From the NCBI RefSeq assembly GCF_008704395.1, contig NZ_CP023695.1:6386001-6450000 (forward strand): a stretch of 64,000 nt of DNA, given 5' to 3'. This document shows, piece after piece, positions 32,967-61,380 of this stretch; within the stretch, counting starts at the first letter, position 1, and each line of letters starts with the position of its first letter. The stretch comes from Streptomyces alboniger (GTDB taxonomy: Bacteria > Actinomycetota > Actinomycetes > Streptomycetales > Streptomycetaceae). A program made the translations under genes and the position numbers. Under the pieces are notes generated by a model. That model ran no database searches, had not been told where the DNA came from, and worked only from the letters and a program-made list of their open reading frames with translations.

Positions 32967-33003
32967 CGTCGTTCTCCGCTTCCAGGTGTGTGGATCTTGC
33001 ACC

Positions 33004-35299: not shown

Positions 35300-37792
35300 A
35301 TGGCCATCCGTCGTCGCAGCTACCGGCTCGATCAGGAGCCCGAAACCGGAGCCGTCCGACTGATCCCCGCGGGCGCCTCGCCCGGGGCGGACGGACAGGT
35401 CCCCGGACAGGTCCCCGGACAGGACCCCGGTCAGGAACACCCAACGGATCTTGCCGAGTTCGGGCCCGCGGTCGAACGCGTCATCGGGGCGGCCTCCGAG
35501 CTGAGCTACAGCCTGCTCCCGGACGGCGGCCGCCTCCTGTGCGCGGCGCTTCCCGGACAGCGCGTGGAGGCGCTGTACCTGAGCGCGGACACCCCGGGGC
35601 CCGGCCCCGTGTGGCCGATCGACACGTGGCGCTCGGCGACCTGGGAGCCGGGCGCGCAGGAGACACTCGGCGCCGGGTTCATCGAGTCCGAACTGCCCGT
35701 CCCCGAGGCGCACTTCGACCGCGAGCTGCTGGTGGAATTCGCCCGGGAGCGCGCGGACCGTGTCGCGCCCTTCCTCGCCGATGTGCGCCGCCTCTTCGAA
35801 GACCCGGCCGGACGGCAGATCGTCCTCGTCGAGAAGGACTCCGAGACCGTGGCCCGCTGGGTCGCGCTCGCCTGCGCCTCGCTGCCCGAGGCGTACGTCC
35901 CTCTGCTCACGTTCACCACCTGGACCACCGCCCCGCACCAGTCCCCGCAGCAGATCATCGGGATCGGCCCGGAGACGGAGTTCGACCGGACCGACCCCGC
36001 CACGGTCACGTACCTGTACCGCGTGCACGACGGCACGGGCGGCCCCCAGAGCCCGCCCCCCGACCGCGACCCCTGGGCCCGGTTCACCGCCGAGCGCTGG
36101 ATCTCCGGGAACCCGCCGCGGCCCGGCCCCGGGGCCATGCCGCGGCCCGAGGACGCCTTCGCGCTGCTCCCGCTCATCGCCAGAGGCGGCGGCAGCGGGA
36201 GTGACGGCGGCGACGGGAGCGGGGGCGGCGACGGGAGTGAGGGCGGTGGCGCGGGCCTCACGAGAGCCCCCTCGGGCGCCGACCTCGCCGGGCTCGGCGA
36301 AGACTCCCTCCGCGCGGTCTTCGATGACCTCGCCGGGTCCGTGGCGCGGGGCGAGACCGACTCCCGCACGCTCGGCGAACTCGACCGGCTCTGCCGAGGG
36401 CTCGACGACGACCGGGCCCGCGCGGCCCGGCCGCTGGCCCTCGCTCTCGTCAAACACCATCTCGACGCGCCCCGCGCCCGTGACATCCTGCCCGATCTCA
36501 CCGCCTTCGAAGGGCTGCCGCTCGGCCAGGAGGCCTGGCGGCAGCTGCGCGAGGAGTACGGCGACCGCGCCGACGACGCGCTGCGCCGCAGACTCTCCGA
36601 CCCCCTCCACACCTGGACGGAGCCGCTGAGGCTCGCCCTCGCCGTGGGCACCGACGGCGGACCGGGGCTCGACGAGGCCATGAACCGGCTCGCGGGAGCA
36701 CTGCTGCGCCCCGACCGGGGCGAGTGCGCCCACGCGGTCCGCGTCCTCGACGAGGTCGGACACCTCCCCCTCACCCGCCGGGTGCTGCGCCTGCTCATCA
36801 AGGACTTCACCGAGCGCAAGCTCGACCGTCTGCGGGAGCTGGCCCGCTCCCCGCACGGCGACTGGCTGCGGCGGCACATCGAGGAGGCGCCGCTCACCGT
36901 CCGGCTCGCCGCCGCCGCCGCGCAGTGGCACGGCCCCCCGGACCACCTGCGCGGCGCCGAACTGTTCAAGCGGCTCACCGAACTCCTTCCCACACGGAAG
37001 GTCGAGGACAAGACCACTCTGGGCCTGCTGTGGCACATCGTGTGGCGCGCCAACCCGCCGGACCGCGCCGAGCAGCCCTGGATCGCCCGCACCTGCACGC
37101 CCCGCCTGATCGTCGAGGCGGACCTCGGCCGTCGCGTCATCGGCTGGCTGAGGGAGCCGGACCGCTGCGACGCGGAGCTGGTCGACTTCGCCCGGGCGAT
37201 GTGCGGTGACTCCAAACTGGGCGCGGGAGACCGGCACACCGCCGCCCTGCTCGTGACCGCCCAGGACCTCGCGGACGGCCGTACGCTCCTCACCCGCTCC
37301 GCCGTCGAGCGCCTCGGAGAGCTGTTCCGCAAGGCACCGCCGCCCGGCCTGGTCCTGCGGCAGGGCATCGACGAGCGGGTGGGCCACGCCCTCGCCCGGG
37401 CGAACCCCCTCGACGTGTGCGACTCCCACGGCGTGCGGATCCTCTTCGCCGCCGGACGGGAACTGCTGCGGCCCTACCGCGCGTACTTCCTGGACGACCG
37501 CACCCGCGACCGCCTGCTGCGCGAACTGCCCGAGCAGCCCGCCGAGTTGGCCGCGTACTTCCACATCTGGCGGCCCCGGCAGCGGCACGGCGTCAGCCCG
37601 GAATGGAACACGGTCGCCGAGGAACTGCTCGACGAGGTCCTCGCGCCCGTCCTCGCGCACGTGGACGACCATCACCTCGGCCGCGTGGCGACCGTCCTCC
37701 AGCGTGAGAACCAGGACGTGCAGGGATGGACGGCGTGGCGCCACCGGATCAGGCAGCGGACCGAGCATCCGACCGCGCCCCAGGACGAGTAG
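35300..37792 (+). CDS. GTPase-associated protein 1 (GAP1)-like protein
   Basis: 830 residues, soluble. The N-terminal domain (RRRSYRLDQEPETGAVRLIPAG; LSYSLLPDGGRLLCAA; SWEPG-type insert) and the LTFTTWTTAPHQSPQQIIG stretch resemble GAP1-related proteins that accompany small GTPases, vWA proteins and other regulators in conflict-type gene neighbourhoods. The rest is helical and repetitive. A Gly/Ser/Asp linker is at about 294-313. A 12-bp tandem repeat near the start encodes VPGQ units. ATG 35300 is 6 bp after a CAGAAT -10-like sequence, so the transcript may be leaderless. First gene of the right-going arm. Confidence 0.72.
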   Translation: MAIRRRSYRLDQEPETGAVRLIPAGASPGADGQVPGQVPGQDPGQEHPTDLAEFGPAVERVIGAASELSYSLLPDGGRLLCAALPGQRVEALYLSADTPGPGPVWPIDTWRSATWEPGAQETLGAGFIESELPVPEAHFDRELLVEFARERADRVAPFLADVRRLFEDPAGRQIVLVEKDSETVARWVALACASLPEAYVPLLTFTTWTTAPHQSPQQIIGIGPETEFDRTDPATVTYLYRVHDGTGGPQSPPPDRDPWARFTAERWISGNPPRPGPGAMPRPEDAFALLPLIARGGGSGSDGGDGSGGGDGSEGGGAGLTRAPSGADLAGLGEDSLRAVFDDLAGSVARGETDSRTLGELDRLCRGLDDDRARAARPLALALVKHHLDAPRARDILPDLTAFEGLPLGQEAWRQLREEYGDRADDALRRRLSDPLHTWTEPLRLALAVGTDGGPGLDEAMNRLAGALLRPDRGECAHAVRVLDEVGHLPLTRRVLRLLIKDFTERKLDRLRELARSPHGDWLRRHIEEAPLTVRLAAAAAQWHGPPDHLRGAELFKRLTELLPTRKVEDKTTLGLLWHIVWRANPPDRAEQPWIARTCTPRLIVEADLGRRVIGWLREPDRCDAELVDFARAMCGDSKLGAGDRHTAALLVTAQDLADGRTLLTRSAVERLGELFRKAPPPGLVLRQGIDERVGHALARANPLDVCDSHGVRILFAAGRELLRPYRAYFLDDRTRDRLLRELPEQPAELAAYFHIWRPRQRHGVSPEWNTVAEELLDEVLAPVLAHVDDHHLGRVATVLQRENQDVQGWTAWRHRIRQRTEHPTAPQDE
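35393..35428 (+). repeat. 12-bp tandem repeat (GGACAGGTCCCC x3) in the GAP1-like gene
   Basis: Three consecutive units, the last with one change (GGACAGGACCCC), followed by a partial GGTCAG. It encodes GQVPGQVPGQDPGQ after the N-terminal strand, probably a flexible spacer that can vary in length. Confidence 0.7.
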
Positions 37793-37876
37793 TCCGCCCG
37801 TTCGAGCGGCTCCCCCTCGGAAGCCCCCGAAGCCCCCGCCCCCCGCACCCTTCGCGCTCCATAGGAAAGGACCAGC

Positions 37877-38587
37877 GTGAGCGACACCAGCGACACTGTC
37901 GTCGTCGACAACTTCCCCGGCGGAAGCATGGCCAGCCGCCCCGTGCACTTCATCTGGATGCTCGACTGCTCGGGCTCCATGGGAGTGAACGGCAAGATCG
38001 GCGAGCTGAACTTCGCCATCCGCGAGGCCATCCCCGAGATGCAGCAGGCCGCCCAGTCCAATCCCGCCGCCTCCCTGCTCGTGCGGGCCATCACCTTCGC
38101 CAGCGGGGCGAGCTGGCACGTCAGCGACCCCACCCCGGTCGACCAGTTCTCCTGGGAGGACGTGCACATCTACGGCGGCACGGACATGGGCGCCGCGTTC
38201 AAACTGGCCGCCGGTGCGCTCCAGACGCCGCCGATGCCGCAGCGCGCCCTGCCGCCGGTGCTCGCCCTCGCCTCCGACGGGCAGCCCACCGACGACTGGC
38301 GGGCCGGGCTGCGCGCCATCGACAGCACCCCGTGGGGCAAGCGGGCCGTGCGCGTCGCGGTCGCCATCGGTGACGACGCCGACAAGAGCATGCTCAAGGA
38401 GTTCCTCGGCAACCCCGAGCTGGAGCCGCTCCAGGCGAAGAACCCCCGCCAGCTCGCCGCGGCCATCCGCTGGATGTCCACCGCGGTCGTCAAGGACGCC
38501 TCCACGCCGAAGGTCGACGACGGCTCTCGGCCCACGACGCCGATCGACGTCCCGTCGATGACCAAGGGCGAAGACGACATCTGGTGA
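37877..38587 (+). CDS. vWA-domain protein, TerY-like
   Basis: 236 residues almost wholly a von Willebrand A domain. The metal-binding MIDAS motif is MLDCSGSMG, with later threonine in YGGTDMGAAF and aspartate in LASDGQPTDDW. TerY-type vWA proteins form a triad with a PP2C phosphatase and a kinase, as here. AGGAAAGG precedes the GTG. The stop overlaps the phosphatase GTG (GTGA). Probably an adaptor that assembles or presents partners rather than an enzyme. Confidence 0.85.
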   Translation: MSDTSDTVVVDNFPGGSMASRPVHFIWMLDCSGSMGVNGKIGELNFAIREAIPEMQQAAQSNPAASLLVRAITFASGASWHVSDPTPVDQFSWEDVHIYGGTDMGAAFKLAAGALQTPPMPQRALPPVLALASDGQPTDDWRAGLRAIDSTPWGKRAVRVAVAIGDDADKSMLKEFLGNPELEPLQAKNPRQLAAAIRWMSTAVVKDASTPKVDDGSRPTTPIDVPSMTKGEDDIW

Positions 38588-39492
38588 CGGGACCGCAGAC
38601 AGCGACCGGACCGGATCCGGTGTCCGGCCCCATGACGGCCGCACCCTGGGCGCTGCTCAGCGGCGCGGTCAAGGGAGTGGCCAAGAAGTACAGCCAGGAC
38701 CGCAGCGCCGCGCTGTCCGTCGCCGGGGGCCGCGCGGTCGTCCTCGTGGTCGCCGACGGGCACGGCAGCGCCGCCCACTTCCGCAGCGACCTCGGGGCGA
38801 GTTGGGCGGTCGAGGAGTTCACCGCGTGCGCGCGGGCCTTCGCGTACGAAGCGGTCCGGGTCGGCGGCGACGCCTCGGGCTGGACCGGGCTGCGCGAGGA
38901 GGCGCGCCGCCTGCCGCAGCAGGTCGGCCACCGCTGGCACGAATGGGCCCTGCTGCACGACCGCAACTCGCCCGCGCACGGCGCCCGTTCGCACCGTGCG
39001 GGGCGCGCGGAGACGGAGCGCGACCGCAAGGAGCCCCCGGACCTCGCCGCCTACGGCAGCACCCTCATCGGAGCCGTGCTGACCGAACGTATGGTGTTCT
39101 GCTGGCAGTTGGGCGACGGCGACATCGTGTTCGTCGACGACGCGGGCGTCCCGCACACCCCGCTCTCCACCGGCCCCGACATGGGCGACGAGACCGACTC
39201 GCTCTGCGCGCCCGAGCCCTGGCGCAAGATGCGCTCGCACTGGCAGCCCTTCACGGGCGGCGCCCCGCCGTGCGTACTGCTCTCCACCGACGGGCTCTCC
39301 AAGAGCTTCGCCGACCACCAGGGGTTCCTGGACTTCGCCACGGGCCTCAGCGGCCGCGCCGCAGAGCAGGGCGTGGCGGCGGTCCAGAGCCAGCTACCGG
39401 ACTGGCTGGCGCGGGCCGCCCAGTTCTCCGGGGACGACACGACCCTCGTGGGCGCCATCGCGGCGCCCGCGCGGCGCAGCGACGAATCGTAA
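38584..39492 (+). CDS. PP2C-type protein phosphatase
   Basis: 302 residues. PP2C motifs are complete: VVADGHGSA, AYGSTLIGAVL, QLGDGDIVFVDD, LLSTDGLSKSF and SGDDTTLVGA, giving the metal-binding aspartates. It would dephosphorylate Ser/Thr in partners of the kinase two genes along. GTG 38584 overlaps the vWA stop; ATG 38632 is an alternative. Confidence 0.88.
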   Translation: MTGPQTATGPDPVSGPMTAAPWALLSGAVKGVAKKYSQDRSAALSVAGGRAVVLVVADGHGSAAHFRSDLGASWAVEEFTACARAFAYEAVRVGGDASGWTGLREEARRLPQQVGHRWHEWALLHDRNSPAHGARSHRAGRAETERDRKEPPDLAAYGSTLIGAVLTERMVFCWQLGDGDIVFVDDAGVPHTPLSTGPDMGDETDSLCAPEPWRKMRSHWQPFTGGAPPCVLLSTDGLSKSFADHQGFLDFATGLSGRAAEQGVAAVQSQLPDWLARAAQFSGDDTTLVGAIAAPARRSDES

Positions 39493-39517
39493 GGGCAGAA
39501 AGGCAGAGAGGAACAGA

Positions 39518-40869
39518 ATGGTGAACGGCATGCTCGCCGCCGGAAAGACCCTGGTGGCCGAGTCGGGGGAGAAGCTCAAGGTCGCCGAGCTCTTCGGCTC
39601 CGGCGGCCAGGGCGAGGTCTACCGCGTCACGACGCCCACCGGCGACCACGCGGTCAAGTGGTACTACCCCCAGCTGGCCGACGCCCGCCAGCGGGAGATC
39701 CTCGAAGGGCTCATCGCCAAGGGCTGGGACGACGACCGCTTCCTGTGGCCGCGCTCCATCGTGATGGATCCCGCGGGCAAGCAGCCCGGCTTCGGCTACC
39801 TCATGGACGTACGGCCCGCCCGCTTCTGCGACCTGCCCGCCCTCTTCCGCCGTGACCCGTCGGTGTCCGCCGCGACGATGCGCACTCTGGTGACCGTGGC
39901 GCTGCACACCGTCGAGGCGTACCGCGCGCTGCACTCCCGGGGCATCGCCTACCGCGACATCAACTGGGGCGCAACATCTTCTTCGACCCGCGCACCGGCG
40001 ACGTCCTCGTCTGCGACAACGACAACGCCGTCGTGGAGGGCGCCGAGGCGGGCGTCGCGGGCACCATGGACTTCATGGCGCCCGAGCTGGTGCGCGGCGA
40101 CAAGGGCATCCAGCCCGGCACCCAGAGCGACCTGCACTCGCTCGCCGTCCTCCTCTTCTACCTCCTGATGAACGATCACCCGCTCAATGGAGCCCTGGAG
40201 TTGAACATCCGCTGCCTCGACATGGCCGCCAAACGCAAGCTGTACGGCACGGATCCCGTCTTCGTCTACGACCCCAAGGACACCCGCAACCGCCCGGTCC
40301 CCAGCGAGCAGCCCACCGTCGTTGCCAGTTGGAACGCGCTGCCGCAGATCCTGCGTGACCTGTTCGTGCGCACTTTCACGGACGGCCTGCACAACCCCTC
40401 CCTGCGGGTGCGCGAGTCACAGTGGCGCGAGGCGCTCAGCCAGGTCCTCGACGCCATCACGCAGTGCGGCGCGTGCGGCAAGCAGAACCTCACCCAGCCG
40501 GACGGAGCCCCGCCCAACTGCTGGAAGTGCCGCACCACCCTGACCCTGCCGCCCCGCCTCGAACTGGTCACGGGCACCGGCACGCTGCGCACCCGCCGGG
40601 GCATCCGCCTCGCTCCCAGCGCCCGCGTCTACGCCCATCACCTGCGCGACGACCCCGACCGCCACGACTTCACCGCCGTGGTCGGCGAGGTCACCGAACA
40701 CCCTCAGCAGCGTGGCCGGTTCGGCCTCACCAACCGTACGAGGTCGGTGTGGACGGCGCGCAAGGACGACGGCACGGTCCGGGACGTGGAACCGGGCAAG
40801 ACGATCGCCCTGCGCTCGGGACTGCTCATCGAGTTCGGCGGCGGCACGGAGGCCGTGGTCAAGGAGTGA
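39518..40869 (+). CDS. Ser/Thr protein kinase of the TerY-type triad, reading frame broken at ~39970
   Basis: The 5' frame (39518 to ~39970) encodes the glycine loop GSGGQGEVYRV, Lys47 in AVKWYY, and catalytic YRDINWG (Asp147). The 3' frame resumes with NIFFDPRTGDVLVCDND (D-N-D in place of DFG), TMDFMAPEL, kinase C-lobe, a zinc ribbon (CGACGKQN, NCWKC) and an FHA-like beta domain to 40869. The frames differ by an extra GC (GGCGC) at 39970-39972 or an equivalent one-base loss. Without correction the kinase ends at 40168 without its C-lobe. Error, real mutation and programmed shift are all possible. GAGAGGA precedes the ATG. Confidence 0.75.
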
Positions 40870-40881
40870 CGCAGGGCCGTC

Positions 40882-42971
40882 TCACGGCCGCCACCAGCGC
40901 CGCCACCACCCCCGCCACCAGGGAGGCTCCGAGGGTAGCGGGGGTGGTGGCGGAGGCGCCGCGGGGAGTGTCGCGCTGGCCGGGGGCGTGTCGATCGCGA
41001 CGGCGTCGGGGCGGGGCAGCGGCACCGCGGTGACCACGCACACGTCGGCGGACACGGGGATCTCCACCCGCCCGGCGAGCAGCGCGCTGCGTGCCACATG
41101 CCGCTCCCCGCCCCGCAGGCCGTCGCCCCACGCCACGCGGACCAGGACCGCCGGTTCCGGCCAGTCGAAGCGCACCTCGGCGCGGTCCGCATCGATCCGA
41201 CGCACCATCAGATCCCTAATCGGCGCCGGGCTTTCGATGACCAGGCTCGGTCCGGACACGGCCCGGTCGCCGAGCACGCTCACCGCCGTCACACGGACGC
41301 GCCGCTCGGGCCGCGGTGTCAGCTCGGCGCACGACTCGGCGCCGGCCGACCGCGCCGGGACGGCGTCCACCGTACCCACGAGGTCCGACACGTCCGTGCC
41401 CGGCGGGACGGGGCCCGCCGTCCAGGGGATGAGCAGCCCGTCGCCGACGGCGGGGGGCCGCCAGGTGATGGTCACGCGCTCGCCGTCCGCGTGCCGCCGC
41501 ACGGTGAGTTCCTCCACCGGCGACGGCCACCGCTCGGCCCGCTCGGTGAGGGTGACGCCGCGGGACCACACGAGGTCGCCGTCCGGATCGCGGTAGCCGC
41601 AGCGCACCTCGTAGGTGTACGTCCCCGGCGCCAGGGGCGCGTCGAGCAGCCCGTCGTGGGCGCAGGGGACCCGCACCAGCGACGCCCCCCCCAGCCCTCG
41701 GTGGCGTCACCGAAGCCCGAGCGCGTCACCCGTACCTCGGCCGCCGCCGGGTCGGGCCGCCAGCGCAGCCGCACCCCGCCGGGGACGACGTTGGCGCGCA
41801 GCTCCGTCACCACAGGAGTGAGCAGCACCGGCCCCGTGACGCGGGGCACCCCGGCGAGGCGATCGCGGCGCAGCGGGACGACGGCGTATCTCAAGGGGCG
41901 GCCCACCGGGGCTTCGGTGTCGACGCTGCCGAGGCCCGTCTCGCCCGCCGCCGTCTCGACCGCCAGCTGGGGGGCGCCGTCGGGAAAGCGCAGGACGCGG
42001 TAGGTGACGCCGTGGGCGCGGCGCGGCGGCGCGCACCAGGACAGGCGTACGGCCCGGTCGTCGGTCACGGCGCCGACCTCGGCGTCCGCCGGGGCGAAGG
42101 GGTCGTCGGCAAGGAGCGTGGCCACGCGCAACAGCTCCGTGTGGGCGTGCGGGTCGTCCCGCGCCAGGCGCAGCGCGCCGAGCCGCGCGGTGGCGGCGGC
42201 ACGCAGCGCGCCCTCGGCCTCGGACCGTGCGGCCTCGGCGGTGAGCCGGTCGACGTCCGCGGCTCGCGCGCGGAGGGAGCCCACCAGTGCGCTCAGGCGG
42301 TGGTCCTGCGGCCCGTCCGGGGAGGCGGAGCCGCGCGGCAGCCGCGCCACGACCCGCTCCGCCTCGCGCAGCCGCGGGCCCGGCCATACGTCGTTGAGCG
42401 TCTCGGCGGCGTGCCGGGCGGGCCCGGGGCCGGGGAATCCGGCGGCCACCGCCGCGGCGAGCTGTCCCGCCTCGCTGCGGTGCACTCCGAGCGCCACCGC
42501 GTCGGCGGCCCCCGGGCTGTCACCGGCGTCCGTGAGGAGGCAGCACACCTCCCACAGGACGATGCGGCGCAGGCCCATCGCGTCGTCGGTCAGGACCGTC
42601 TCCAGAATGTCCACCAAGGCCGCGGCCTGACGGGCACGAGGCTCCCCGGAGGCCTGCCAGCGGGCGCCCGCCCGCTGGACGTACGGCCGGTCGACGCGCT
42701 GCCAGATGCCGCCGCGGCCGGGGAACCAGAGGCCGTCGAGCACCCGGAAGCCGTCGTCCTGTTCGGCCCTCGGGAGCGTGCCGAACAGGGCGTCCGTCGC
42801 GGGCGCGGCCGCCGGGGCCCGCAGCACCTCCGCCGCATGCCTGAAGCCCGCCTCCCGCATGGCCTCGCGCAGCGCGACGTACCCGCGCATGCCGGGGCAG
42901 CGGGGCAGGACGGGCAGCGGCGGGCGGGCGCCGCTCGCCTTCGGGTGTTCGCCGGGGCGCAGGACCGCCAT
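40882..42971 (-). CDS. FN3-domain protein, frame broken in a G8 tract at ~41692
   Basis: About 696 residues if joined. The N-terminal ~300 residues are helical and Ala/Arg-rich. Fibronectin type III-like repeats follow (VRLSWCAPPRRAHGVTYRVLRF; VTITWRPPAVGDGLLIPW; AEVRFDWPEPAVLVRVAWG). The C-terminus is Pro-rich and ends with a Trp/Arg cluster (WWRGWWRRWWRP). The frame shifts where the coding strand has eight G after EGWGG; nine would restore it (42971-~41692 joined to 41676-40882). No signal peptide. Last gene of the left-going arm, 12 bp from the kinase gene end. Likely a binding or scaffold protein. Confidence 0.68.
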
Positions 42972-42974
42972 GCC

Positions 42975-43466
42975 TCAGCCGCCCGGCGCCGTGTAGAAGT
43001 ACACGCGGACCACGGCGGTCTCGGGCCGCTTGCCGAGGTTGTGGAAGTCGTCCGTCGCCGTCTTCTTGGTGAACATGTCCGGACGGCCCTTGCCGAGGAG
43101 GCCGTTCACGCGGTGGGCGTAGACCGTGCCGTTCGGGCCCCCGCCGAAGGTGAGCACGAGCGCGGCCCGGCGGCCCGACCACTTCCGGGTGCCCTTCGAG
43201 ATCTGCGCGACGAGGTCGCCCTTGCCCCGACCCGACACCTGGAACTCCTGGGGGTCGCGGTCCACGGCGAGGGGCCCGGTGGGAGTGGGGGAGGGCTTGC
43301 CGCCTTTGGACGGCGGGGGCTTGGGGCGGTCGTCGGCCTGCGGGTCGGGGCGGTCGGCCATCGACACGAGTGCGAGGACGAGCAGCAGGTCGGCGAAGAG
43401 CCACCCCGCGAGGAACACCACGCTGAACCGGTTGCCACGCCCGCGCACCGGCCGCCCTCGGCTCAC
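42975..43466 (-). CDS. Short single-TM protein of the large locus
   Basis: 163 residues. A basic N-terminus precedes one membrane helix (RFSVVFLAGWLFADLLLVLALVSM), then a Pro/Lys linker and a ~100-residue extracytoplasmic domain. No OmpA or other known motif was recognised. GTG overlaps the upstream stop (GTGA). Paired with the two-TM coiled-coil protein, it probably forms a membrane complex. Confidence 0.68.
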   Translation of the reverse strand: MSRGRPVRGRGNRFSVVFLAGWLFADLLLVLALVSMADRPDPQADDRPKPPPSKGGKPSPTPTGPLAVDRDPQEFQVSGRGKGDLVAQISKGTRKWSGRRAALVLTFGGGPNGTVYAHRVNGLLGKGRPDMFTKKTATDDFHNLGKRPETAVVRVYFYTAPGG

Positions 43467-44998: not shown

Positions 44999-45086
44999 GC
45001 CAGTTCCCCTCCATGACTCACGGGCGACTCACAGGCAACTCACGGGCGGCTCGCGAGCGGCGGCGCACGCGGGGCGCGACCGGCCT

Positions 45087-49168: not shown

Positions 49169-49596
49169 TCCCGCTCCGTCCCTTGCTCCGTGCCGCCGTC
49201 GACGGCGACAACAACCCGGGCGGCGCGCAGCACTTGCCCCCGGTATCGATACCCGCGCTGGAGGATCTCAAGGACCTCGTCGTCGGCGCTCCCGGGCGGC
49301 GCGGCGCGCACCTCGGTCACCTGGTGCGTCGCCGGTTCGGCCCGCTCGCCGACCCGCCCGACCCGCTCGAGACCCTCCTCGGCCAGCGCCGCCTCCAACT
49401 GCCCGGCGATCAGCGCGAGGCTCCTTCTGTACGTCTCCACATCGCTCGCCGCGCCGTCCGAGAGCAGCCGGTCGAAGGAGTCGAGGACGTCGGCGCAGCG
49501 CAGCAACAGCCGTTCGGTGAGCGCCTGGTGGACCGCGTCGCGGGCGGCCAGGTCGCGGGCGTGCTCGTAGGCGAGCCGGGCCGTCGGGTCAGACAT
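49165..49596 (-). CDS. GrpE-like nucleotide exchange factor
   Basis: 143 residues. N-terminal helix region, then the GrpE head signature LAEEGLERVGRVGERAEPATHQVTEVRA and VLEILQRGYRYRGQVLRAARVVVA. GrpE releases ADP from Hsp70, so this should serve the adjacent Hsp70. ATG overlaps the upstream stop. Shorter N-terminal coiled coil than housekeeping GrpE. Its end overlaps the Hsp70 ATG. Confidence 0.83.
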   Translation of the reverse strand: MSDPTARLAYEHARDLAARDAVHQALTERLLLRCADVLDSFDRLLSDGAASDVETYRRSLALIAGQLEAALAEEGLERVGRVGERAEPATHQVTEVRAAPPGSADDEVLEILQRGYRYRGQVLRAARVVVAVDGGTEQGTERE

Positions 49597-49975
49597 CGAA
49601 GCGGATCAGATCGTCCAGGAGGCGCGCGGTGGCCTCCGGGAGCGGGTGCCCGGGGCGCTCCTGGGGCGTGGCCTCGTCCGCATGCCCCGGGGACGCCGTC
49701 TCGACGGCCAGGCGCCGGTCGATCTCCGCTGCCGCCACCGGGAGTTCGGCGTCGAGGTCGACGTCGTACAGGAGCAGATCGACGAGCATTCTGCGGCGTA
49801 CGACGCGCAGCTCGTCCCACGCCTGCTGGGTGACCGGCGTCATCAGGTGCCGGGCGAGCAGTTCGAAGGAGACGTCCCGCATGTCGGCGTGGGTCGTCCA
49901 GGGTGTCACACCGGCCGGGGCGAGCGCGTCGTAGGGGAAGGGGCCCTCCCAGCTCGCGTCGGGGTCCTTGATCAC
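49589..49975 (-). CDS. Small helical protein of the large locus
   Basis: 128 residues, no signal or membrane helix. WEGPFPYDALAPAGVTPWTTHADMRDVSFELLARHLMT followed by charged helices. No family recognised. GTG 49975 overlaps the CHAT gene stop and its end overlaps the GrpE start, so its place in the coupled chain is firm. Possibly an adaptor between the protease and the chaperone. Confidence 0.65.
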   Translation of the reverse strand: MIKDPDASWEGPFPYDALAPAGVTPWTTHADMRDVSFELLARHLMTPVTQQAWDELRVVRRRMLVDLLLYDVDLDAELPVAAAEIDRRLAVETASPGHADEATPQERPGHPLPEATARLLDDLIRFDV

Positions 49976-52900: not shown

Positions 52901-55656
52901 CGCAGATCGGCGGCCACGCGCGCGCGTGCGTAAAGGCGCCGCACGCCGACCTCGCCCTGGGCGTACGTGTCGGGCAGCCGCCCGAACCCATCGATGACCC
53001 CGCCCCACTCGCCCCGCTCGTCGGCGGCCCGCCCGCGCGAGTACAGCACCCGGTCCGGTACGTCCGACAGCTCGGACGGCAACCCGGCGAAGTGGGCGAG
53101 CGCCTGCGCCCAGCGGCCCTGCTCCTGGCAGAGCCGGCCCTCGGCGTACGTGCGCAGGTGGAGCGTGTCGGAGGGCAGGCCGTCCCCGGCGTCACCGCAG
53201 GCCGCCTCCCCGAATGCCTCCGCCGCCGCGCCCCAGTCACCGGATGCCATCGCCGACCGGCCCTGCACATAGCGTCGGAGCGGCCTTGTGGCGCGGTACT
53301 CGGCCGGCAGGGGAGCCAGTTGGGCCAGCGCGGCCGGCCAGTCGGCGGACTCCGCGGCGGCGAGGGCGCCCTCGTATGCGCGGTGGCGCAGCTCGCCGAG
53401 CCACGGCTCCGCGTCCCAACCGTGCGCGGCCGCCGCCGACAGGTCGGTGACCGCGTCGACGACGCGGCCCGCGTCCGCCGCCGCACGCCCCCGCGCGTAC
53501 AGGACCCGCACCCCGCTGTCGAGGAAGCCGTCCGCCGAGCCGTAGCCCGTCACCGCCGCGGCCCACGCCCCCGCCGCTTCCGCCGTCCGTCCCTCGGCAT
53601 ACGCGCACCAGCCGGCCCGCTCGGGCCCCGCCTGCGCGAACGCCTCCCGCGCGCCCGGCCAGTCCCCGTCCCGCGCCGCCGCCCGGCCGCGCGCGTAGGC
53701 CGCCCGTCCCGCCGCGTCCTCCAGGTCCGCGCACGCCCCGTACGCGGCCAGTGCGGCGGGCCAGTCCTCGCTCGCCTCGGCGGCCCGCCCCGCCACGTAC
53801 GCGGCCCACGCCGCGGCTGTACCGTGGCCGGGGCGCAGCGTCAGGACGGTGGCGTACCCCCGCGCGGCCGTCGCCCAGTCGCCCGCCTGCCGCGCCCGCT
53901 CGGCGGCCTCGCAGGTGCGCGCCACGTGCAGTTCGTCGCGTGCGGCCGCGAGCCGCTCCACCACGTCCCGCAGCCCGCCGGGCCGGGCGGCGAGCACGTC
54001 CTCGTAACGGCTGATGGCGGTGGGCCAGTCCGCCGACGCCTCGGCGGCCCGCGCCTCGTCGACGAGCGCGGCCAGGCGCTGAAGCTCGGCCACCTCCGCC
54101 TCCAGGCAGCCCGGCACCGCACCCGGCAAGGCCCGGCGGACCACGTCGAGTTGGGCCGCGGCGGCTGCCGCGTCCCGCTCCCCGGCGAGCAGCGCGCACA
54201 ACTTCTCGACCTGGGGCCAGGCCAGCTCGAAGTCGGCCTCGGCCCGCATCCGGCGCTGCTCATCGGCGTAGCTCTCGGCCGGTGTCCGCAGGATCCGCTG
54301 CACCTGCGCCCAGTCGCCCCGGTCCCGCTGGAAGCGCGCCGCGCCGATCAGGACGGCCGAGCCGACGTGGCCGACGGGGCTCTGGAGCGTCTCCAGCGCG
54401 TGCGCGCCCTCCAGCAGCGGGTCCGGCTCCGCCCGGTCCCGTACCTCCCGTGCCTTGAAGAGCCATCCCTGCCGACAGCCCTCGTGCAGGAACAGCGTGG
54501 GCGTCGCCCACTCCACCGCCGTGTGCTCCGGCTGGTGGGAGATGCGCAGCCGCGCCGCGGCCACCGACTCGTCGACGGTCTTGTTGGCCGCGATGCCCTT
54601 CAGCAGCTCCGGGCTGAACGCTCCCGCCGACACATCGCTGACCAGCCCCCGCATCGCCACCACCGCCGGCACGCCGCCGCCGATCAGCGCCTGCGCGAGC
54701 CCGGAGAAGGGTTCGAGGTGCGAACTGTCCGCCCCGAAACAGAGGTTGAGGGCGACCAGCCGGAGCCGCCGGGATTTCAGCAGGATCCCGCTGAGCAGAT
54801 CCGCGGGCACCCGGTCGCTGCCACCGCTCTCCGTCTCCAGGGCCACCACGCCCTTGCCCAGCTCCTGGTCGTACTCGCCGTGCGCGATCAGTACGACGGC
54901 CGTGGGGAGTTCGTGGTCCTCGGCGAGCGCCGACTCCAGCCCCGCGCGCGTGGCCCGCTCAAGCACCCTGGTCTTCACGGCGACATCGGGCAGATCGTGG
55001 CGCAGGGCGGCCACCTCCGCCGACGTCCGCAGCTGGGCGAGGTCCTTGGGGGAGGCGCAGGCCACCACGAGCCGGATCACGCTCGGCTCGTCCGCCGGCC
55101 CCGGCAGCCGCTGTCCGAGGGACCCGCCCGGCAGGGAACGCGCCAGTGAGTAGCCGTGGTTGAGGGCGAAGGCCTGCTGCGGGCTGCCCGGCGGCCCGCA
55201 CAGCGACTCCAGGGGGAGGTCGCGCAGCTCGGGCGGCAGGTCGAAGCGGAGCCGGATCCCGCGCTGCCTCGACATTCCCTGCGCGCGGTCGTACGCGGTG
55301 TCGACGCAGACGCCGACACGGGTACCGATCCCCTCGCGGGCCTCGCCCTCGGCCCCCTGGCGCGCCTCCTCGTGCTCGCTCTCCTCCGATTCCTTCCCGT
55401 CACCGCCGAACAGCAGGCGGAACACCCCGCGCCCCAGTTCCCGCAGCTGCGCCACGGTGTGCAGTTCGCCCATCGGGGCCAGGCAGAGTTCCGCCGCGAT
55501 CAGCCGGTCCCACTGCTCGCGGAGCGCCGCGGGCTCCGCGCCGACCGTGATGATCTCGGCGGCGGCCGCCGGGCCGTTGGCGGTCACGAGATAGCGGTCG
55601 CCGCCGACGCGGCGGACCCGGATGCGCAGTTCCTCGTAGGTGAGCACGGCCGTCAC
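49972..55656 (-). CDS. Giant CHAT (caspase-like) protease with TPR-type repeats
   Basis: 1,894 residues. An N-terminal strand-rich domain, then a CHAT domain with His259 in VVLIAHGEYDQ and Cys306 in LVALNLCFGADSS, and GVPAVVAMRG afterwards. From about 420 onward are many degenerate TPR-like units with the pattern GDWxxAxxxYxxA and YARGRAAxxxG, then more helical repeats. CHAT proteases cleave after activation by a partner that often binds the TPR region. GTG 55656 overlaps the upstream TPR gene stop. A Cys cluster (HAEGCDHCKDF) is near residue 1555. Confidence 0.88.
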   Translation of the reverse strand: MTAVLTYEELRIRVRRVGGDRYLVTANGPAAAAEIITVGAEPAALREQWDRLIAAELCLAPMGELHTVAQLRELGRGVFRLLFGGDGKESEESEHEEARQGAEGEAREGIGTRVGVCVDTAYDRAQGMSRQRGIRLRFDLPPELRDLPLESLCGPPGSPQQAFALNHGYSLARSLPGGSLGQRLPGPADEPSVIRLVVACASPKDLAQLRTSAEVAALRHDLPDVAVKTRVLERATRAGLESALAEDHELPTAVVLIAHGEYDQELGKGVVALETESGGSDRVPADLLSGILLKSRRLRLVALNLCFGADSSHLEPFSGLAQALIGGGVPAVVAMRGLVSDVSAGAFSPELLKGIAANKTVDESVAAARLRISHQPEHTAVEWATPTLFLHEGCRQGWLFKAREVRDRAEPDPLLEGAHALETLQSPVGHVGSAVLIGAARFQRDRGDWAQVQRILRTPAESYADEQRRMRAEADFELAWPQVEKLCALLAGERDAAAAAAQLDVVRRALPGAVPGCLEAEVAELQRLAALVDEARAAEASADWPTAISRYEDVLAARPGGLRDVVERLAAARDELHVARTCEAAERARQAGDWATAARGYATVLTLRPGHGTAAAWAAYVAGRAAEASEDWPAALAAYGACADLEDAAGRAAYARGRAAARDGDWPGAREAFAQAGPERAGWCAYAEGRTAEAAGAWAAAVTGYGSADGFLDSGVRVLYARGRAAADAGRVVDAVTDLSAAAAHGWDAEPWLGELRHRAYEGALAAAESADWPAALAQLAPLPAEYRATRPLRRYVQGRSAMASGDWGAAAEAFGEAACGDAGDGLPSDTLHLRTYAEGRLCQEQGRWAQALAHFAGLPSELSDVPDRVLYSRGRAADERGEWGGVIDGFGRLPDTYAQGEVGVRRLYARARVAADLRADWAAVLGLLTGVPDEAREGAVAALRRKAEGRRAEEAGDWARACEIHARAFPPRLRGAPLPPGPPPAPLASGTTPVDDEPAHLYHYALARTRELDGRWQDALGVYEAMDEQWADVRARRRYMRARIAEEGADGATAWRGVVEAYEELEREEAHGVDAATRGRYARVRLAEAEGDWARTAAEADALGAHRDAHAVAAYARGRLADAHQEWQRAADAFRQCPGHQDADAHLAYAEGRLLEAAGKWSTAVAAYKRARGVLDRADVRCRRLRRLVGLLPWADGLTSAPLVADPFAVQDQAFPYLALRDAGVDPGASMDVVKNASYALLERGSMSWHERVALERLRLPARRLRLDALLYRWHSPEALRDALAGLSPDEGPGLLDTLCERFPKDAPLLLLLARDREAAAAEWERRLKEAPGDMDVVHGLAAARLWQAQELEQSGAWEHAVGAWESALAYWATLLSDDEYWDGWRAERAVCYERDLTHEDMASLRWELSQHLFGQLSAYEQRHTEQDRPGQAAAYQALAGILESELGGARVLKDVGGLPSVPGARATLACGPRYLRLLRLQAPLGDLVASLDAAAQQGKDPGEYAVRELRWAFSELARSFALCEVRKFGPALRALPALRTLSTLPDDCAGPASRAGHAEGCDHCKDFLLRNPAYVRLPRRHARLLQDGVELAVHVRLALARAALTRGDGGLNEALEHWRELVRVSRDAGMQARSKKAVIRTVLGRAEALADEEGAQLGPCLDEAVRLVESATAVLHPLDRDLLGRLNGRLSALLSLRGVWRGYTRTKHGMRCDVYGAEADLRRALALNPESSHARDNLARALVFTLDERTYEVPARLGLLHEALGLLDVGLGQALTHRYRETLSESLDEMEKLLTRHLGVGGMGDLIRSDGQETPPDDDDLPCWAAELTDKAERALRRGEILWALHHLIRATRADPTDSRIRRALLDAVRRWLAELSPGQGTPEDEAGGSVA

Positions 55657-58478
55657 CGCTCGCTCTCGTCGGGCTGCCACATGACGTGGTCGAGGTCGGC
55701 GACGGCGGCTTCCCGCTGGTCCTCCAGGTCGGGATCGTCCGGGAAGTGCTCCAGGGCGGCGGTGAGCTGGTCGATGGCCTCGCGCAGGGTGTCCCGCGCG
55801 CCGGACAGGCTGCCCGAGCCCCAGCGGGCGGCGGCGAGGCGGCGCAGCACGATGCCGAGGCTGACCTGGGTCCGCAGCAGGTGCGGGTTGAACGCGACGG
55901 AGCGGCGCAGGTCGGCGGCGGGCTGGTCGAGCGGCCCGTCCTCCTCGTTGGCCACGGAGATGCCCCGGTCGGCGAGGACGCGGGCCAACTGTCCCTCCAG
56001 GCGGCCCCGTTCGTTGGCTCCGATCACCGAGCGGGTCGCCTCCAGGGTGGCCACCGCGCGGGTCAGCCGTCCTTCGTAGTGCGCCGCGCGGGCCGCGCCG
56101 AGCGCCATGTCGACGATGGCGGTCTGCGTCTCGCGGTACCGGTCCAGCTCCCGGCTGTGGACCAGGGCGCGGCGCCAGTACGCGGCAGCAGCCGTGAAGT
56201 CGGGCCGGTCGGCGGTGAGTTCGTCGCGCCCCATGCTGAGCCGCGCCTCCAGAGCCAGGCCGCGCGCGTCGAGGGAGAGCCTGCGGTGCCTGTCCGGAAG
56301 CCCGGCGTAACCGGGGTTCAGCTCGTCGAAGCGCGCGCAGTCCGGCTCGCACACGGCCGCCGCCCCGGGCCCGCCCCGCGCGCGACAGCTCGGGCAGCGC
56401 AGCTCGGCGAGGGCGGCGAGGGCGTCGCCGGGCTTGCCGAGACCCAACAGCAGCTGAGCGAAGCCCAGTTCGGAGAAGGCGTAGGTGAGGGAGGTGTACA
56501 TGGGCGGGGCGCCGGCGGCGGGGTCGATGGACGGGTGGCCGGTGACCGCGGCGGTGGCACCGGGCGGGAGTGCGGCGGGCGTGTCCTCGACGGGGTGGAA
56601 GCCGTTCGCCCGGAGCGCGTGGGCCTGCTGCGCGGCGGTGTGCGCGGCGCCCGTGTGCAGCGCACGGGCCTCCTGCGCCGCGGCGAACGCGCCGAACTCG
56701 GCCGACCTGCCCAGCTCCGCGATGCGCAGCGGCCCGCAGAAGAGGGGCACCCCGCCGCCCTGCGCCGAGGGGAAGCCGCCCACGGCGGCGAGCAGCTTCG
56801 CGGCGTCGGCCTCCCGCTGGAGCAGCGGTCCCGGCGCTACACGCGTACCGGCGTCGTCGGGCATGCGCCGCTCCAGCGCCTCGCGCAGACCGGCCCGCAG
56901 GGCAGGCACCAGTGAGGCCTCCACCGCCACGCCGTACCGCCGGGACGCGGTGGCCCGGGCCCGCTCCCAGAACCCCGCGTCGTGCAACACGGAAGCCCAG
57001 GCGGCGATACACCTCTCCCACTCCGGGCCCCGCTGCCCGCCGGGGGAGTTGAGCAGGGCCAGTGCCAAGGTGTGGGTGACCCTGTGGTCGGTGGGGTCGC
57101 GCCGGGCGGCCTCGTGGAGAAGTTCCACGGCGGCGGCGCGCCGGCCGCCGCGCACGAGCACCACGGCGTGCAGCGGAACGAATCCGCCCGGCTCCGGGTC
57201 GAGGCCGCGGGCGGCGTCGACCAGCGCCCCGGCCCGCGCCCGACCGGCGCACTCCCGTGCGGGGTCCGCGCCACGCTCGCTCATCAGCCCCTGGAGCGCG
57301 GCCTTGCGCAGCCGCAGGGCCACCTCGCGCGCGGGGCGGCCCGAGAGCGCCGCCATGACCCAGCGGGCCTCGTCGTCCAGCGGGGCGATCCGGGAGGCGG
57401 CGCGCAGATCGCTGAGCGCCGCTTCCGGGGCGCCCGCGCGCGCGTGGACGTACGCGCGTTGGATCAGGGTGCGGCGGTGCGGGACGGCGCAGGCGAGCGC
57501 GGCGGTGAGGTGGCGCTCGGCGGCGGCGAGGTCACCGCGGTGCGCCGCCGCGCAGCCCAGCCAGTGCAGCGGCCCGGCAGCCGTGGGCCGCAGCCGTCGC
57601 GCCCGCTCGAACTCGACGACGGCCGCGTCGACGTCCCCGGCGGCGAGCCGCACCCGCCCCACCCCGGTCCGAGCCCGCGCCTCAACCCGCCCCCCGCTCC
57701 CCCCAATCCCCCGCTCGCCCCCAGGGCCCCGCCCCCCACCACTTCCCCCACTACCGCCACCCACCACCCCGGAGCAACGTCCCTCACGCTCCGCGCCACC
57801 GCTCTCGTCCCGGCCTTGCCGACCGCCTGGCCCGACCCCCGTGGCGCCGTTTTCCCCGCCCTCCGCGCCGCCGCTCTCGGCTCTGCCTTGCCCGTCGCCC
57901 GCGCCGCCGCTCTCGGCTCTGCCTGCCGGACTGCCTGCGCCGACCCCTTCGGCGCTGTATTCCCCGCGGCCCGCGCCGCTCCTCGGGGTACCGCCTTGTC
58001 CGCTGCCCGCGCTGCCGCTCCTGGTGCTTCCTTCCCGGCTGCCCACGCCGACCCCCGTGGCGCCGTTTTCCCCGCCCTCCGCGCCGCCGCTCTCGGCTCT
58101 GCCTTGCCCGTCGCCCGCGCCGCCGCTCTCGGCTCTGCCTGCCGGACTGCCTGCGCCGACCCCTTCGGCGCTGTATTCCCCGCGGCCCGCGCCGACCCCC
58201 GTGGCGCCGTTCTCCCTGCCGCCCGCACCGCCCCCTTCACCGCTACCTATCCCACCAGCCCCGCCACCATCCCTGAGCCCCTCACCGCCCTCGGCACCCT
58301 CACCGCCGTCGGCGCCCCCCGCCCACGCCGACGTCAGTGTCAGCGCCTCCCGGAAATAGGCTTCCGCCCTCGCGCGGTCGCCGCGATCCAGTGCCGACTC
58401 CCCGGCGGCGCACGCCTGTTCGGCGCGGGTCAGTTCCGCGTCCGACGTCTCCGCGGTGTCCGCGGTCTGCGTAGTCAC
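55653..58478 (-). CDS. TPR-repeat protein with long Gly/Ser-rich repetitive insert
   Basis: About 941 residues. A TPR-like N-terminus (RAEQACAAGESALDRGDRARAEAYFREAL), then a ~200-residue Gly/Ala/Ser/Glu insert containing an exact 49-residue duplication, then TPR helices (VVEFERARRLRPTAAGPLHWLG; AERHLTAALACAVPHRRTLIQRA). A cysteine cluster (RCPSCRARG, VCEPDC) may bind zinc. No enzyme motif. GTG 58478 chosen; TTG 58550 would overlap the previous gene. Coupled to the CHAT gene by GTGA and likely its regulator. Confidence 0.75.
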   Translation of the reverse strand: MTTQTADTAETSDAELTRAEQACAAGESALDRGDRARAEAYFREALTLTSAWAGGADGGEGAEGGEGLRDGGGAGGIGSGEGGGAGGRENGATGVGAGRGEYSAEGVGAGSPAGRAESGGAGDGQGRAESGGAEGGENGATGVGVGSREGSTRSGSAGSGQGGTPRSGAGRGEYSAEGVGAGSPAGRAESGGAGDGQGRAESGGAEGGENGATGVGPGGRQGRDESGGAEREGRCSGVVGGGSGGSGGGRGPGGERGIGGSGGRVEARARTGVGRVRLAAGDVDAAVVEFERARRLRPTAAGPLHWLGCAAAHRGDLAAAERHLTAALACAVPHRRTLIQRAYVHARAGAPEAALSDLRAASRIAPLDDEARWVMAALSGRPAREVALRLRKAALQGLMSERGADPARECAGRARAGALVDAARGLDPEPGGFVPLHAVVLVRGGRRAAAVELLHEAARRDPTDHRVTHTLALALLNSPGGQRGPEWERCIAAWASVLHDAGFWERARATASRRYGVAVEASLVPALRAGLREALERRMPDDAGTRVAPGPLLQREADAAKLLAAVGGFPSAQGGGVPLFCGPLRIAELGRSAEFGAFAAAQEARALHTGAAHTAAQQAHALRANGFHPVEDTPAALPPGATAAVTGHPSIDPAAGAPPMYTSLTYAFSELGFAQLLLGLGKPGDALAALAELRCPSCRARGGPGAAAVCEPDCARFDELNPGYAGLPDRHRRLSLDARGLALEARLSMGRDELTADRPDFTAAAAYWRRALVHSRELDRYRETQTAIVDMALGAARAAHYEGRLTRAVATLEATRSVIGANERGRLEGQLARVLADRGISVANEEDGPLDQPAADLRRSVAFNPHLLRTQVSLGIVLRRLAAARWGSGSLSGARDTLREAIDQLTAALEHFPDDPDLEDQREAAVADLDHVMWQPDESER
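57832..58194. repeat. Exact 147-bp direct repeat (57832-57978 and 58048-58194)
   Basis: The two copies are identical over 147 bp and start 216 bp apart (72 codons). Each encodes the same 49 residues of the Gly/Ala/Ser/Glu insert. The sequence after copy 2 begins a partial third copy. Unit length keeps the reading frame, so copy number can change without breaking the gene. Confidence 0.8.
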
Positions 58479-58530
58479 AGTCAGCCCCCGATCCACGGCG
58501 AACACCCCGCCGTGCCCTCCGGCCGGCGTG

Positions 58531-59001
58531 TCAGCCGGCGGCCTCGTCAAGGACCGAGCGCCAGCGGCCCTGGGCGCGGTCGTAGTGCAGCGGCCCCACC
58601 GCGAACTCCGCCAGGTCGAGCCCGATCAGCGACTCGTACGCCTCGGCGGGCAGATCGGGCTCCAGCACGATGCTCAGCCCGCCCCCGGGGTCCTGGAGGA
58701 CCAGCGGCCTGGCCTCGGCGCCCGCGGGCGACCCCGGACGCGCGGTTTTCCGTACGACCCCCTTGAACGCGGCGTACGCGTCCTTGACCGCCTCCGCCCC
58801 GAGGCCGCTGAGGAACGCCTGCAACGGCAGGGAGGCCAGGACGATCCAGGGGATGTCGGCCGCCCCGCGGTGGACGAGGGTGCGGCGGACCCGGACCGGC
58901 GGGGCGCCGAGCCGGTCGAGCGCGGCGGCCAGCTCCTGCCCGATGTCCTCGGGGACGTCGCGGTCCAGGAGCAGCTCCGCTCGCGGCGGCGCATCGGTCA
59001 T
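58531..59001 (-). CDS. Small alpha/beta protein, first gene of the left-going arm
   Basis: 156 residues. RAELLLDRDVPEDIGQELAAALDRLGAPPVRVRRTLV, then IPWIVLASLPLQAFLSGLG, then LVLQDPGGGLSIVLEPDLP. No known domain was recognised; the size and position fit the effector-associated proteins that accompany CHAT/TPR loci. ATG 59001 with GGAAGGA upstream. It heads the coupled run, 52 bp before the TPR gene. Confidence 0.62.
   Translation of the reverse strand: MTDAPPRAELLLDRDVPEDIGQELAAALDRLGAPPVRVRRTLVHRGAADIPWIVLASLPLQAFLSGLGAEAVKDAYAAFKGVVRKTARPGSPAGAEARPLVLQDPGGGLSIVLEPDLPAEAYESLIGLDLAEFAVGPLHYDRAQGRWRSVLDEAAG

Positions 59002-59205: not shown

Positions 59206-61380
<2,175 letters not shown>

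What the first reader, a model, noticed from the sequence alone, without database searches (positions are those of the whole stretch)
35300..59001. Large two-arm system: TerY-type vWA/PP2C/kinase triad facing an Hsp70-GrpE-CHAT-TPR operon
The right-going arm has GAP1-like, vWA, PP2C and kinase genes. The left-going arm is a run of ten genes, most overlapping by 4 bp, with a CHAT protease, TPR proteins, a full Hsp70 with GrpE, a degenerate Hsp70-TPR and two membrane proteins. The arms meet with 12 bp between ends. TerY-P triads and CHAT/TPR systems are each known; this combination with a dedicated Hsp70 pair is not one I recognise. A model: phosphorylation and chaperone state control a caspase-like protease in a stress or antiviral response.
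Basis: partly seen in the sequence, partly recalled or inferred. Interest (0 to 1): 0.93.

Follow-up and report, generated by a model that had tools for sequence, protein, structure and literature searches.

The report
GTPase-less GAP1 system with CHAT protease
A Streptomyces chromosome carries a conserved 14-gene, two-arm cluster in which a phosphorylation switch and a dedicated chaperone set accompany a caspase-like protease; it looks like a rebuilt version of a predicted bacterial conflict system whose usual GTPase switches are missing.

Summary
In detail: four rightward genes (GAP1, vWA, PP2C, kinase) converge with 12 bp on ten leftward genes (small alpha/beta protein, TPR, CHAT-TPR, small helical protein, GrpE, Hsp70, degenerate Hsp70-TPR, two membrane proteins, FNIII-type protein). 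Kinase and FNIII genes are each frameshifted in this assembly and intact in WAC 01529. It behaves as one unit: of 10 Streptomyces genomes found with an orthologous CHAT, 9 carry the matching vWA, and in 6 both arms lie on one contig in the same convergent layout. The parts are not unknown: Kaur et al. 2020 describe GAP1-N2 'GTPase-centric' conflict systems with an Hsp70/GrpE theme and a kinase/PP2C/vWA theme, called non-overlapping. This locus merges both, adds a CHAT-TPR protease, and lacks the defining double GTPases: DO-GTPase2 is absent from the whole genome in 9 of 11 and lies on another contig in the other two. Its GAP1 lacks a stretch conserved in 12 canonical GAP1 proteins. The leftward arm ends in the FNIII component of the canonical rightward system, which ties the arms together. 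A mechanism (chaperone- and phosphorylation-gated protease) is inference. Verdict: new variant of a known kind, conserved but rare; antiviral function untested.

The parts
35300..37792 (+). GAP1 protein (830 aa), GAP1-M and GAP1-C present, GAP1-N2 eroded
   Evidence: Pfam PF20052 E=4.6e-60, PF20014 E=1.6e-20, no PF20013; hhalign to canonical GAP1 from residue 67 on, conserved canonical stretch missing
37877..38587 (+). stand-alone vWA protein (236 aa)
   Evidence: VWA_2 E=0.0022; DCSGS motif conserved in the locus type (its metal-site meaning recalled)
38584..39492 (+). PP2C phosphatase (302 aa)
   Evidence: PF13672 E=5.3e-29; DGHG, GDGD and DDTT motifs conserved (meaning recalled)
39518..40869 (+). 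Ser/Thr kinase with C-terminal zinc ribbon and beta-rich part; frame changes at about 39970 in this assembly
   Evidence: Pkinase matches in two frames; single frame in WAC 01529; motifs in 7 relatives
40882..42971 (-). FNIII-type component; frame changes at about 41685-41736 in this assembly
   Evidence: WAC 01529 has one 706-aa ORF, 32% over 669 aa to the canonical FNIII gene of G023, E=1.4e-45; Pfam fn3 itself only E=0.17
42975..43466 (-). small protein with one hydrophobic segment carrying an invariant Asp (163 aa)
   Evidence: A7, 7 sequences (membrane helix judged by eye); no Pfam or PDB relative
43463..44998 (-). protein with two hydrophobic stretches (by eye) and a long helical-looking tail (511 aa)
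   Evidence: A8, 7 sequences; only weak matches to JetC and ZorA models (E=2.6e-4, 5.6e-4)
45087..47030 (-). degenerate Hsp70 nucleotide-binding domain fused to TPRs (647 aa)
   Evidence: DLGGGTFD-type motif replaced by GMGY.GFEL in 6 of 7 orthologues, MGYGGYEA in the seventh
47027..49168 (-). full Hsp70 with zinc-ribbon-like insertion between its two domains (713 aa)
   Evidence: PF00012 E=1.7e-113; four-Cys insertion in 9 of 9 locus Hsp70s held, absent from one DnaK of the same genome
49165..49596 (-). GrpE (143 aa)
   Evidence: PF01025 E=1.2e-16
49589..49975 (-). small helical protein (128 aa) sharing a 70-aa region with the CHAT-TPR protein
   Evidence: 37% over 70 aa to CHAT-TPR residues 1204-1273; AF2 weak
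49972..55656 (-). CHAT protease domain followed by TPRs (1894 aa)
   Evidence: PF12770 E=6.3e-19; His259 and Cys306 invariant in 11 of 11
55653..58478 (-). TPR protein (about 941 aa; start uncertain), similar to the CHAT-TPR C-terminal half
   Evidence: 28% between the two proteins across loci
58531..59001 (-). first gene of the leftward arm, small alpha/beta protein (156 aa), no known family
   Evidence: A4, 10 sequences; AF2 pLDDT 78, pTM 0.75; no PDB match at E<=0.001; not EACC1

Best explanation
One two-arm, chromosomal conflict or stress-response system, descended from the GAP1-N2 kinase/PP2C/vWA system of actinobacteria. Shown: the canonical double GTPases are gone from the locus and, in 9 of 11 genomes, from the genome; the GAP1 domain expected to meet the GTPase is eroded; the FNIII component now sits at the end of an operon coding for GrpE, Hsp70, a pseudo-Hsp70 with TPRs and a CHAT-TPR protease; the 14 genes stay together in one layout in a Streptomyces clade. 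Inferred: the Hsp70/GrpE pair and the TPR proteins hold the CHAT protease in a silent complex. Damaged or foreign proteins titrate the Hsp70, or the vWA/PP2C/kinase set changes the phosphorylation of GAP1, FNIII or the TPR proteins, and this frees the protease. It then cleaves a partner in the same cluster (candidates: GAP1, the FNIII protein, the two membrane proteins) and causes dormancy or death of the cell.
For: Identity: Pfam. Conserved unit; all 14 genes were matched in 5 of the 6 relatives with both arms on one contig, 13 in S. alboflavus, whose contig ends just past vWA. Descent: canonical order FNIII, DO-GTPase2, GAP1, DO-GTPase2, vWA, PP2C, kinase in G023; FNIII homology E=1.4e-45. 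GTPase loss. GAP1-N2 erosion. Motifs kept in CHAT, kinase of relatives, PP2C, vWA and the full Hsp70. CHAT and Hsp70-TPR share 37 contig lengths among 120 and 119 listed proteins, some outside Streptomyces.
Against: No functional data. The order of signalling and the protease substrate are guesses. PADLOC gave only weak or generic hits for the 10 proteins submitted. The ten neighbouring ORFs scanned are not defence genes. One of 10 genomes (S. beijiangensis) has the CHAT arm and no vWA match; that arm runs into a contig end, and GAP1 was not searched there. A GTPase too diverged for PF19993 is not excluded, and PF19975 (DO-GTPase1) was not searched genome-wide.
Confidence: 0.5

Rival explanations
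1. Two independent systems that happen to be neighbours: a GAP1/TerY-P-like switch and a separate CHAT/Hsp70 proteostasis operon.
For: The kinase/PP2C/vWA/GAP1 set is common without the other arm (15 of 150 genomes by vWA at 54-62%; 14 of the 15 with GAP1 and FNIII nearby). S. beijiangensis has the CHAT arm and no vWA match. Outside Streptomyces the GAP1 neighbourhood was not read.
Against: The FNIII component of the canonical rightward system is the last gene of the leftward operon. In the 150-genome sample the orthologous vWA (95-98% in two relatives, plus the window) is found exactly where the orthologous CHAT is, 3 of 3. 9 of 10 relatives keep both. CHAT and vWA share a contig length in Actinomadura sp. 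3N508.
Confidence: 0.12
2. A housekeeping envelope or proteotoxic-stress device: Hsp70/GrpE and TPR proteins service a membrane complex, and CHAT is a regulatory protease, with no role in conflict.
For: Fixed chromosomal site with the same flanks in several species; no orthologue-grade CHAT in plasmids, phages or viral contigs (4 plasmids and 1 phage record gave partial matches at 28-34% identity); two conserved proteins with hydrophobic segments.
Against: Patchy: 3 of 150 genus genomes and 1 of 396 phylum genomes at orthologue level. GAP1 diverges fast (44-87% between species, 9 compared) while vWA stays at 85-99% (10 compared), as might be expected of a conflict component.
Confidence: 0.3
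3. A decaying system in this strain: the kinase and FNIII frameshifts are real and the arms no longer work together.
For: Both genes change frame in the window and not in WAC 01529.
Against: Both breaks lie at G/C runs, one of them eight G, a usual place for sequencing indels (recalled); no other gene assigned here is split against WAC 01529.
Confidence: 0.1

Closest known systems
GAP1-N2-type GTPase-centric conflict systems (Kaur et al. 2020, eLife 9:e52696, PMC7159879; start of abstract, sections 27 and 29 and search passages seen)
   Same: GAP1-M/C, FNIII-type component, and the gene sets of theme 2 (HSP70, GrpE, second HSP70 without its peptide-binding domain) and theme 3 (active kinase with zinc ribbon and beta-rich part, PP2C, stand-alone vWA).
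   Different: No DO-GTPase; eroded GAP1-N2; two themes described as non-overlapping are in one locus; CHAT-TPR protease added; FNIII gene moved to the opposite-strand operon.
TerY-P triad (passages in PMC11090510; original description by Anantharaman et al. 2012 only cited there)
   Same: vWA, PP2C and a kinase with C-terminal zinc ribbon in one run.
   Different: Linked to GAP1 and FNIII; no ter or restriction gene among ten neighbouring ORFs; no TerY-P label from PADLOC for the vWA, PP2C or kinase.
CoCoNuT type II/III-A systems (PMC11090510, passages seen)
   Same: A TerY-P triad together with an Hsp70-like protein.
   Different: Defined by McrB/McrC homologues, with HEPN nucleases; none found among the proteins of this locus.
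EACC1-caspase two-gene system (Kaur et al. 2020, system 4, passages seen)
   Same: A small 5' gene ahead of a gene for a caspase-superfamily protease (here with a TPR gene between).
   Different: The small protein is not EACC1 by HMM or by profile comparison.

Membership tests
GAP1-N2 GTPase-centric system | GAP1-M and GAP1-C domains | tested here: met
   PF20014 and PF20052 above their cut-offs
GAP1-N2 GTPase-centric system | GAP1-N2 domain | tested here: inconclusive
   No PF20013 match in P0001 or its WAC 01529 orthologue; hhalign finds a shortened remnant without the YTGADYSGRWGNFHAHA-like stretch of 12 canonical proteins
GAP1-N2 GTPase-centric system | DO-GTPase gene next to GAP1 | tested here: not met
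   PF19993: 0 in the window's genome; 0 in 9 of 11 genomes with the CHAT locus, on other contigs in 2; 4 of 4 GAP1-positive comparison genomes have two each
GAP1-N2 GTPase-centric system | FNIII-repeat component | tested here: met
   Homologous to the component of a canonical locus, E=1.4e-45; Pfam fn3 alone E=0.17, not significant
Theme 2 (HSP70/GrpE) | HSP70, GrpE and (in a subset) a second HSP70 without peptide-binding domain | tested here: met
Theme 2 (HSP70/GrpE) | FNIII protein fused to DnaJ or TPR ('typically') | tested here: not met
   No DnaJ or TPR match in the 706-aa orthologue
Theme 3 / TerY-P-like triad | Kinase with zinc ribbon, PP2C, stand-alone vWA in one run | tested here: met
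   kinase frameshifted in the window, intact in 7 relatives aligned; zinc ribbon judged from its cysteines
TerY-P triad | Linkage to ter or restriction modules | tested here: not met
   None among ten neighbouring ORFs scanned; the rest of the window was not scanned
CHAT proteases | CHAT domain with catalytic His and Cys | tested here: met
   PF12770 E=6.3e-19; His259 and Cys306 invariant in 11 of 11 (catalytic roles recalled)
EACC1-caspase system | EACC1 protein | tested here: not met
   No PF19953 hit at this locus in G000, G081, G093, G154 or G158; hhalign probability 0.14%
CoCoNuT | McrB/McrC homologues | tested here: not met
   No such domain in Pfam scans of the locus proteins

The most novel reading that the evidence does not exclude
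A chaperone-switched bacterial caspase system. A GAP1 conflict system replaced its GTPase pair by an Hsp70 pair (one active Hsp70 with a zinc ribbon at the inter-domain linker and one ATPase-degenerate Hsp70 with TPRs), so that protein-folding state, together with a kinase/phosphatase/vWA set, decides when a CHAT protease is released.
Probability: 0.25. Interest if true: 0.85.

Novelty: new variant of a known kind. Interest (0 to 1): 0.6.

Why it matters
It offers a natural experiment on the GAP1 systems, whose function is predicted, not tested, in what I read: where the GTPases are missing, the GAP1 domain thought to meet them lacks its conserved stretch, which supports that contact. It also shows a chaperone theme and a phosphorylation theme joined around a caspase-like protease, which gives concrete tests of how a bacterial caspase could be gated by a chaperone.

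Tried and rejected
J-domain idea for the 128-aa protein: suggested by eye; AF2 weak (pLDDT 62.7, pTM 0.31), no meaningful PDB match, no HPD motif in the 9 aligned sequences; left as an unsupported lead.

EACC1 idea for the first leftward gene: rejected.

Ion-channel pair idea for the two membrane-type proteins (MotB/ZorB-like Asp in the hydrophobic segment, recalled): no Pfam support for the small one, no PDB support for either; only weak JetC/ZorA hits for the larger one.

Mobile origin: no orthologue-grade CHAT in plasmids or phages (4 plasmid records and 1 phage record with partial matches at 28-34%), no relative in viral contigs, no Hsp70-TPR in plasmids at E<=1e-20; no tRNA in the window; no Rfam family at 34000-61500.

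Spread in the genus: 26 of 150 genomes match the CHAT query at E<=0.001, but only the window and two others at 79% or more; the other 23 are partial matches of 30-44% identity, some of them in genomes with canonical theme-3 loci (such as G018, G048, G111, G127), at other places. Spread in the phylum: 10 of 396 genomes match at E<=1e-20; only the window's own is orthologue-grade; the other 9 are lower matches (best E=6.0e-45), taken to be other CHAT proteins; only 4 candidates per genome were scored.

The genome scan used two short peptide patterns, so distant loci will have been missed. Contig-length matching is an indirect sign of co-location, not a read neighbourhood; it covers 120 of 137 CHAT, 119 of 119 Hsp70-TPR and 120 of 1540 vWA proteins (one search left out the shorter vWA contigs, one search has all 120; same result). 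In one search the row own_L003 was a wrong-frame translation and was ignored. In one search one ORF of G023 between GAP1 and vWA was scanned in a wrong frame; the GTPase there was found.
Full report
WHAT IS THERE. The window lies in a 7.96 Mb single-contig genome. Pfam confirms the rightward arm GAP1, vWA (weakly), PP2C and kinase, and in the leftward arm TPR, CHAT-TPR, GrpE, Hsp70 and Hsp70-TPR. Four other leftward genes have no solid Pfam match: the first gene (156 aa), the 128-aa protein, and two proteins with hydrophobic segments. The tenth gene is the FNIII-type component, recognised by homology. The arms converge with 12 bp between stops, and with 12, 66, 9, 19, 27 and 130 bp in six relatives.

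TWO FRAMESHIFTS. The kinase and the FNIII-type gene each run through two frames in the window. In WAC 01529 both are single ORFs of 449 and 706 aa. No other gene assigned here is split in the compared 34 kb. Both breaks sit in G/C runs, so sequencing error is likely but not shown.

ONE CONSERVED UNIT. In 150 genomes of the genus, CHAT at 79-89% identity occurs in two besides the window; 23 more genomes have only partial, weaker CHAT matches. The same two carry the vWA at 95-98%. A scan of named genomes gave 10 Streptomyces loci with CHAT, those two among them; 9 of the 10 genomes have the orthologous vWA. In WAC 01529, S. flavofungini, S. alboflavus, S. aureoverticillatus, S. lasiicapitis and S. 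alfalfae both arms lie on one contig in the convergent layout; all 14 genes were matched in five of these, and 13 in S. alboflavus, whose contig ends just past vWA. In S. silaceus, S. atriruber and S. aurantiacus the arms are on separate short contigs. S. beijiangensis has the CHAT arm at a contig end and no vWA match; GAP1 was not searched there. Abhydrolase and P450 genes flank the GAP1 end, and amidotransferase and LysR genes the other end, in several of them. Pairwise identities of CHAT correlate with those of vWA, GAP1 and PP2C (r = 0.84, 0.86, 0.92; 10, 9 and 9 species; 5, 0 and 0 of 2000 permutations as high). These species form two clades, so this shows absence of discord rather than strong co-evolution.

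DESCENT. In the same genus sample, 15 of 150 genomes carry a vWA at 54-62% (five more have only vWA matches of 30-35%). Of these 15, 14 have FNIII, GAP1, vWA and kinase matches within one stretch of up to 20 kb (13 also PP2C); the fifteenth sits on a 5.3-kb contig without GAP1. None of these stretches gave a CHAT, Hsp70 or GrpE hit. In G023 the order is FNIII, DO-GTPase2, GAP1, DO-GTPase2, vWA, PP2C, kinase. This is theme 3 of the GAP1-N2 systems of Kaur et al. 2020 (PMC7159879, section 29). The same section's theme 2 has HSP70, GrpE and, in a subset, a second HSP70 without its peptide-binding domain; it calls the themes non-overlapping. The present locus carries both.

THE MISSING GTPASES. 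PF19993 (DO-GTPase2) has no match in the window's genome. Among 11 genomes with the CHAT locus, 9 have none at all and two (S. flavofungini, S. alboflavus) have a pair on a contig other than the locus; four GAP1-positive comparison genomes each have two. GAP1 and vWA are 84 bp apart here. The GAP1 N-terminus has no GAP1-N2 match. Profile alignment of 6 locus GAP1 proteins to 12 canonical ones aligns from residue 67 on (probability 99.9%), and shows that a stretch conserved in the canonical ones (YTGADYSGRWGNFHAHA-like) is shortened by nine residues and not kept here. Loss of the GTPase and loss of this stretch fit each other; that the stretch binds the GTPase is inference, though the paper argues from co-variation of types that GTPase and GAP1 interact (section 27).

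THE CHAPERONE ARM. The full Hsp70 keeps GIDLGTTNS, DLGGGTFD and LLVGGGT in the window and carries a four-cysteine insertion between its domains in 9 of 9 locus Hsp70s held; the DVLLLD linker of a DnaK of the same genome is absent. The Hsp70-TPR protein has lost the DLGGGTFD-type motif and keeps an LLVG-type one (7 orthologues), so ATPase activity is doubtful. CHAT has an invariant His259 and Cys306 in 11 of 11. The TPR protein resembles the C-terminal half of CHAT-TPR, which could in part be repeat similarity, and the 128-aa protein resembles CHAT-TPR residues 1204-1273. Neighbouring proteins that share parts would fit a complex.

BREADTH. Proteins related to this CHAT number 137 and to the Hsp70-TPR 119 (only the candidates sharing most words were scored). 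Most named ones are from Streptomyces; others are from Actinomadura, Gandjariella, Saccharopolyspora, Actinophytocola, Amycolatopsis and Glycomyces. 37 contig lengths are shared by the two listed sets; 4 by vWA and CHAT (among them Actinomadura sp. 3N508) and 2 by vWA and Hsp70-TPR. In a sample of 396 genomes of the phylum only the window's own had an orthologue-grade CHAT, so it is rare.

FUNCTION. I found no functional evidence. The conflict reading rests on descent from systems predicted to be conflict systems, on fast divergence of GAP1, and on the protease. PADLOC, given 10 of the proteins, returned generic kinase hits (best PD-T4-6, E=1.8e-14, on the WAC 01529 kinase) and weak hits for Hsp70, CHAT and the larger membrane-type protein. 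The ten neighbouring ORFs scanned are not defence genes.

LITERATURE. Searches (open-access PMC only) listed no paper that, as far as the listings and passages show, joins CHAT, Hsp70/GrpE and GAP1. In the main text of PMC7159879 'CHAT' and 'TerY' occur 0 times, though it speaks of caspase-superfamily peptidases. Its supplement could not be read. CoCoNuTs (PMC11090510, passages) pair a TerY-P triad with Hsp70-like proteins but rest on McrB/McrC. PMC11237479 (passages) mentions a DO-GTPase in a membrane-stress operon only.

VERDICT.

Noticed in passing
59215-61380 (+): Two-domain terpene synthase (721 aa; geosmin/germacradienol-synthase type by recall) directly beside the locus; no match to it at this spot in L117-L122.
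   Followed up: partly
39970 and 41685-41736: Two window-only frame changes in adjacent convergent genes, both at G/C runs.
   Followed up: partly
L085, L099: Streptomyces GAP1 loci with an AAA_2 (ClpB-type) protein and a degenerate Hsp70; DO-GTPase2 genes flank GAP1 there. A third locus, L092, has similar gene sizes and an Hsp70 hit.
   Followed up: partly
L049, L050: Relatives of the first leftward gene (30-35%) lie near distant CHAT genes, so this small protein may be a more general CHAT partner.
   Followed up: partly
47027-49168 (-): Hsp70 with a conserved four-cysteine insertion in place of the usual inter-domain linker.
   Followed up: partly
31692-33002 (-): DUF1266 protein next to P450 and abhydrolase genes upstream of the locus.
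   Followed up: no
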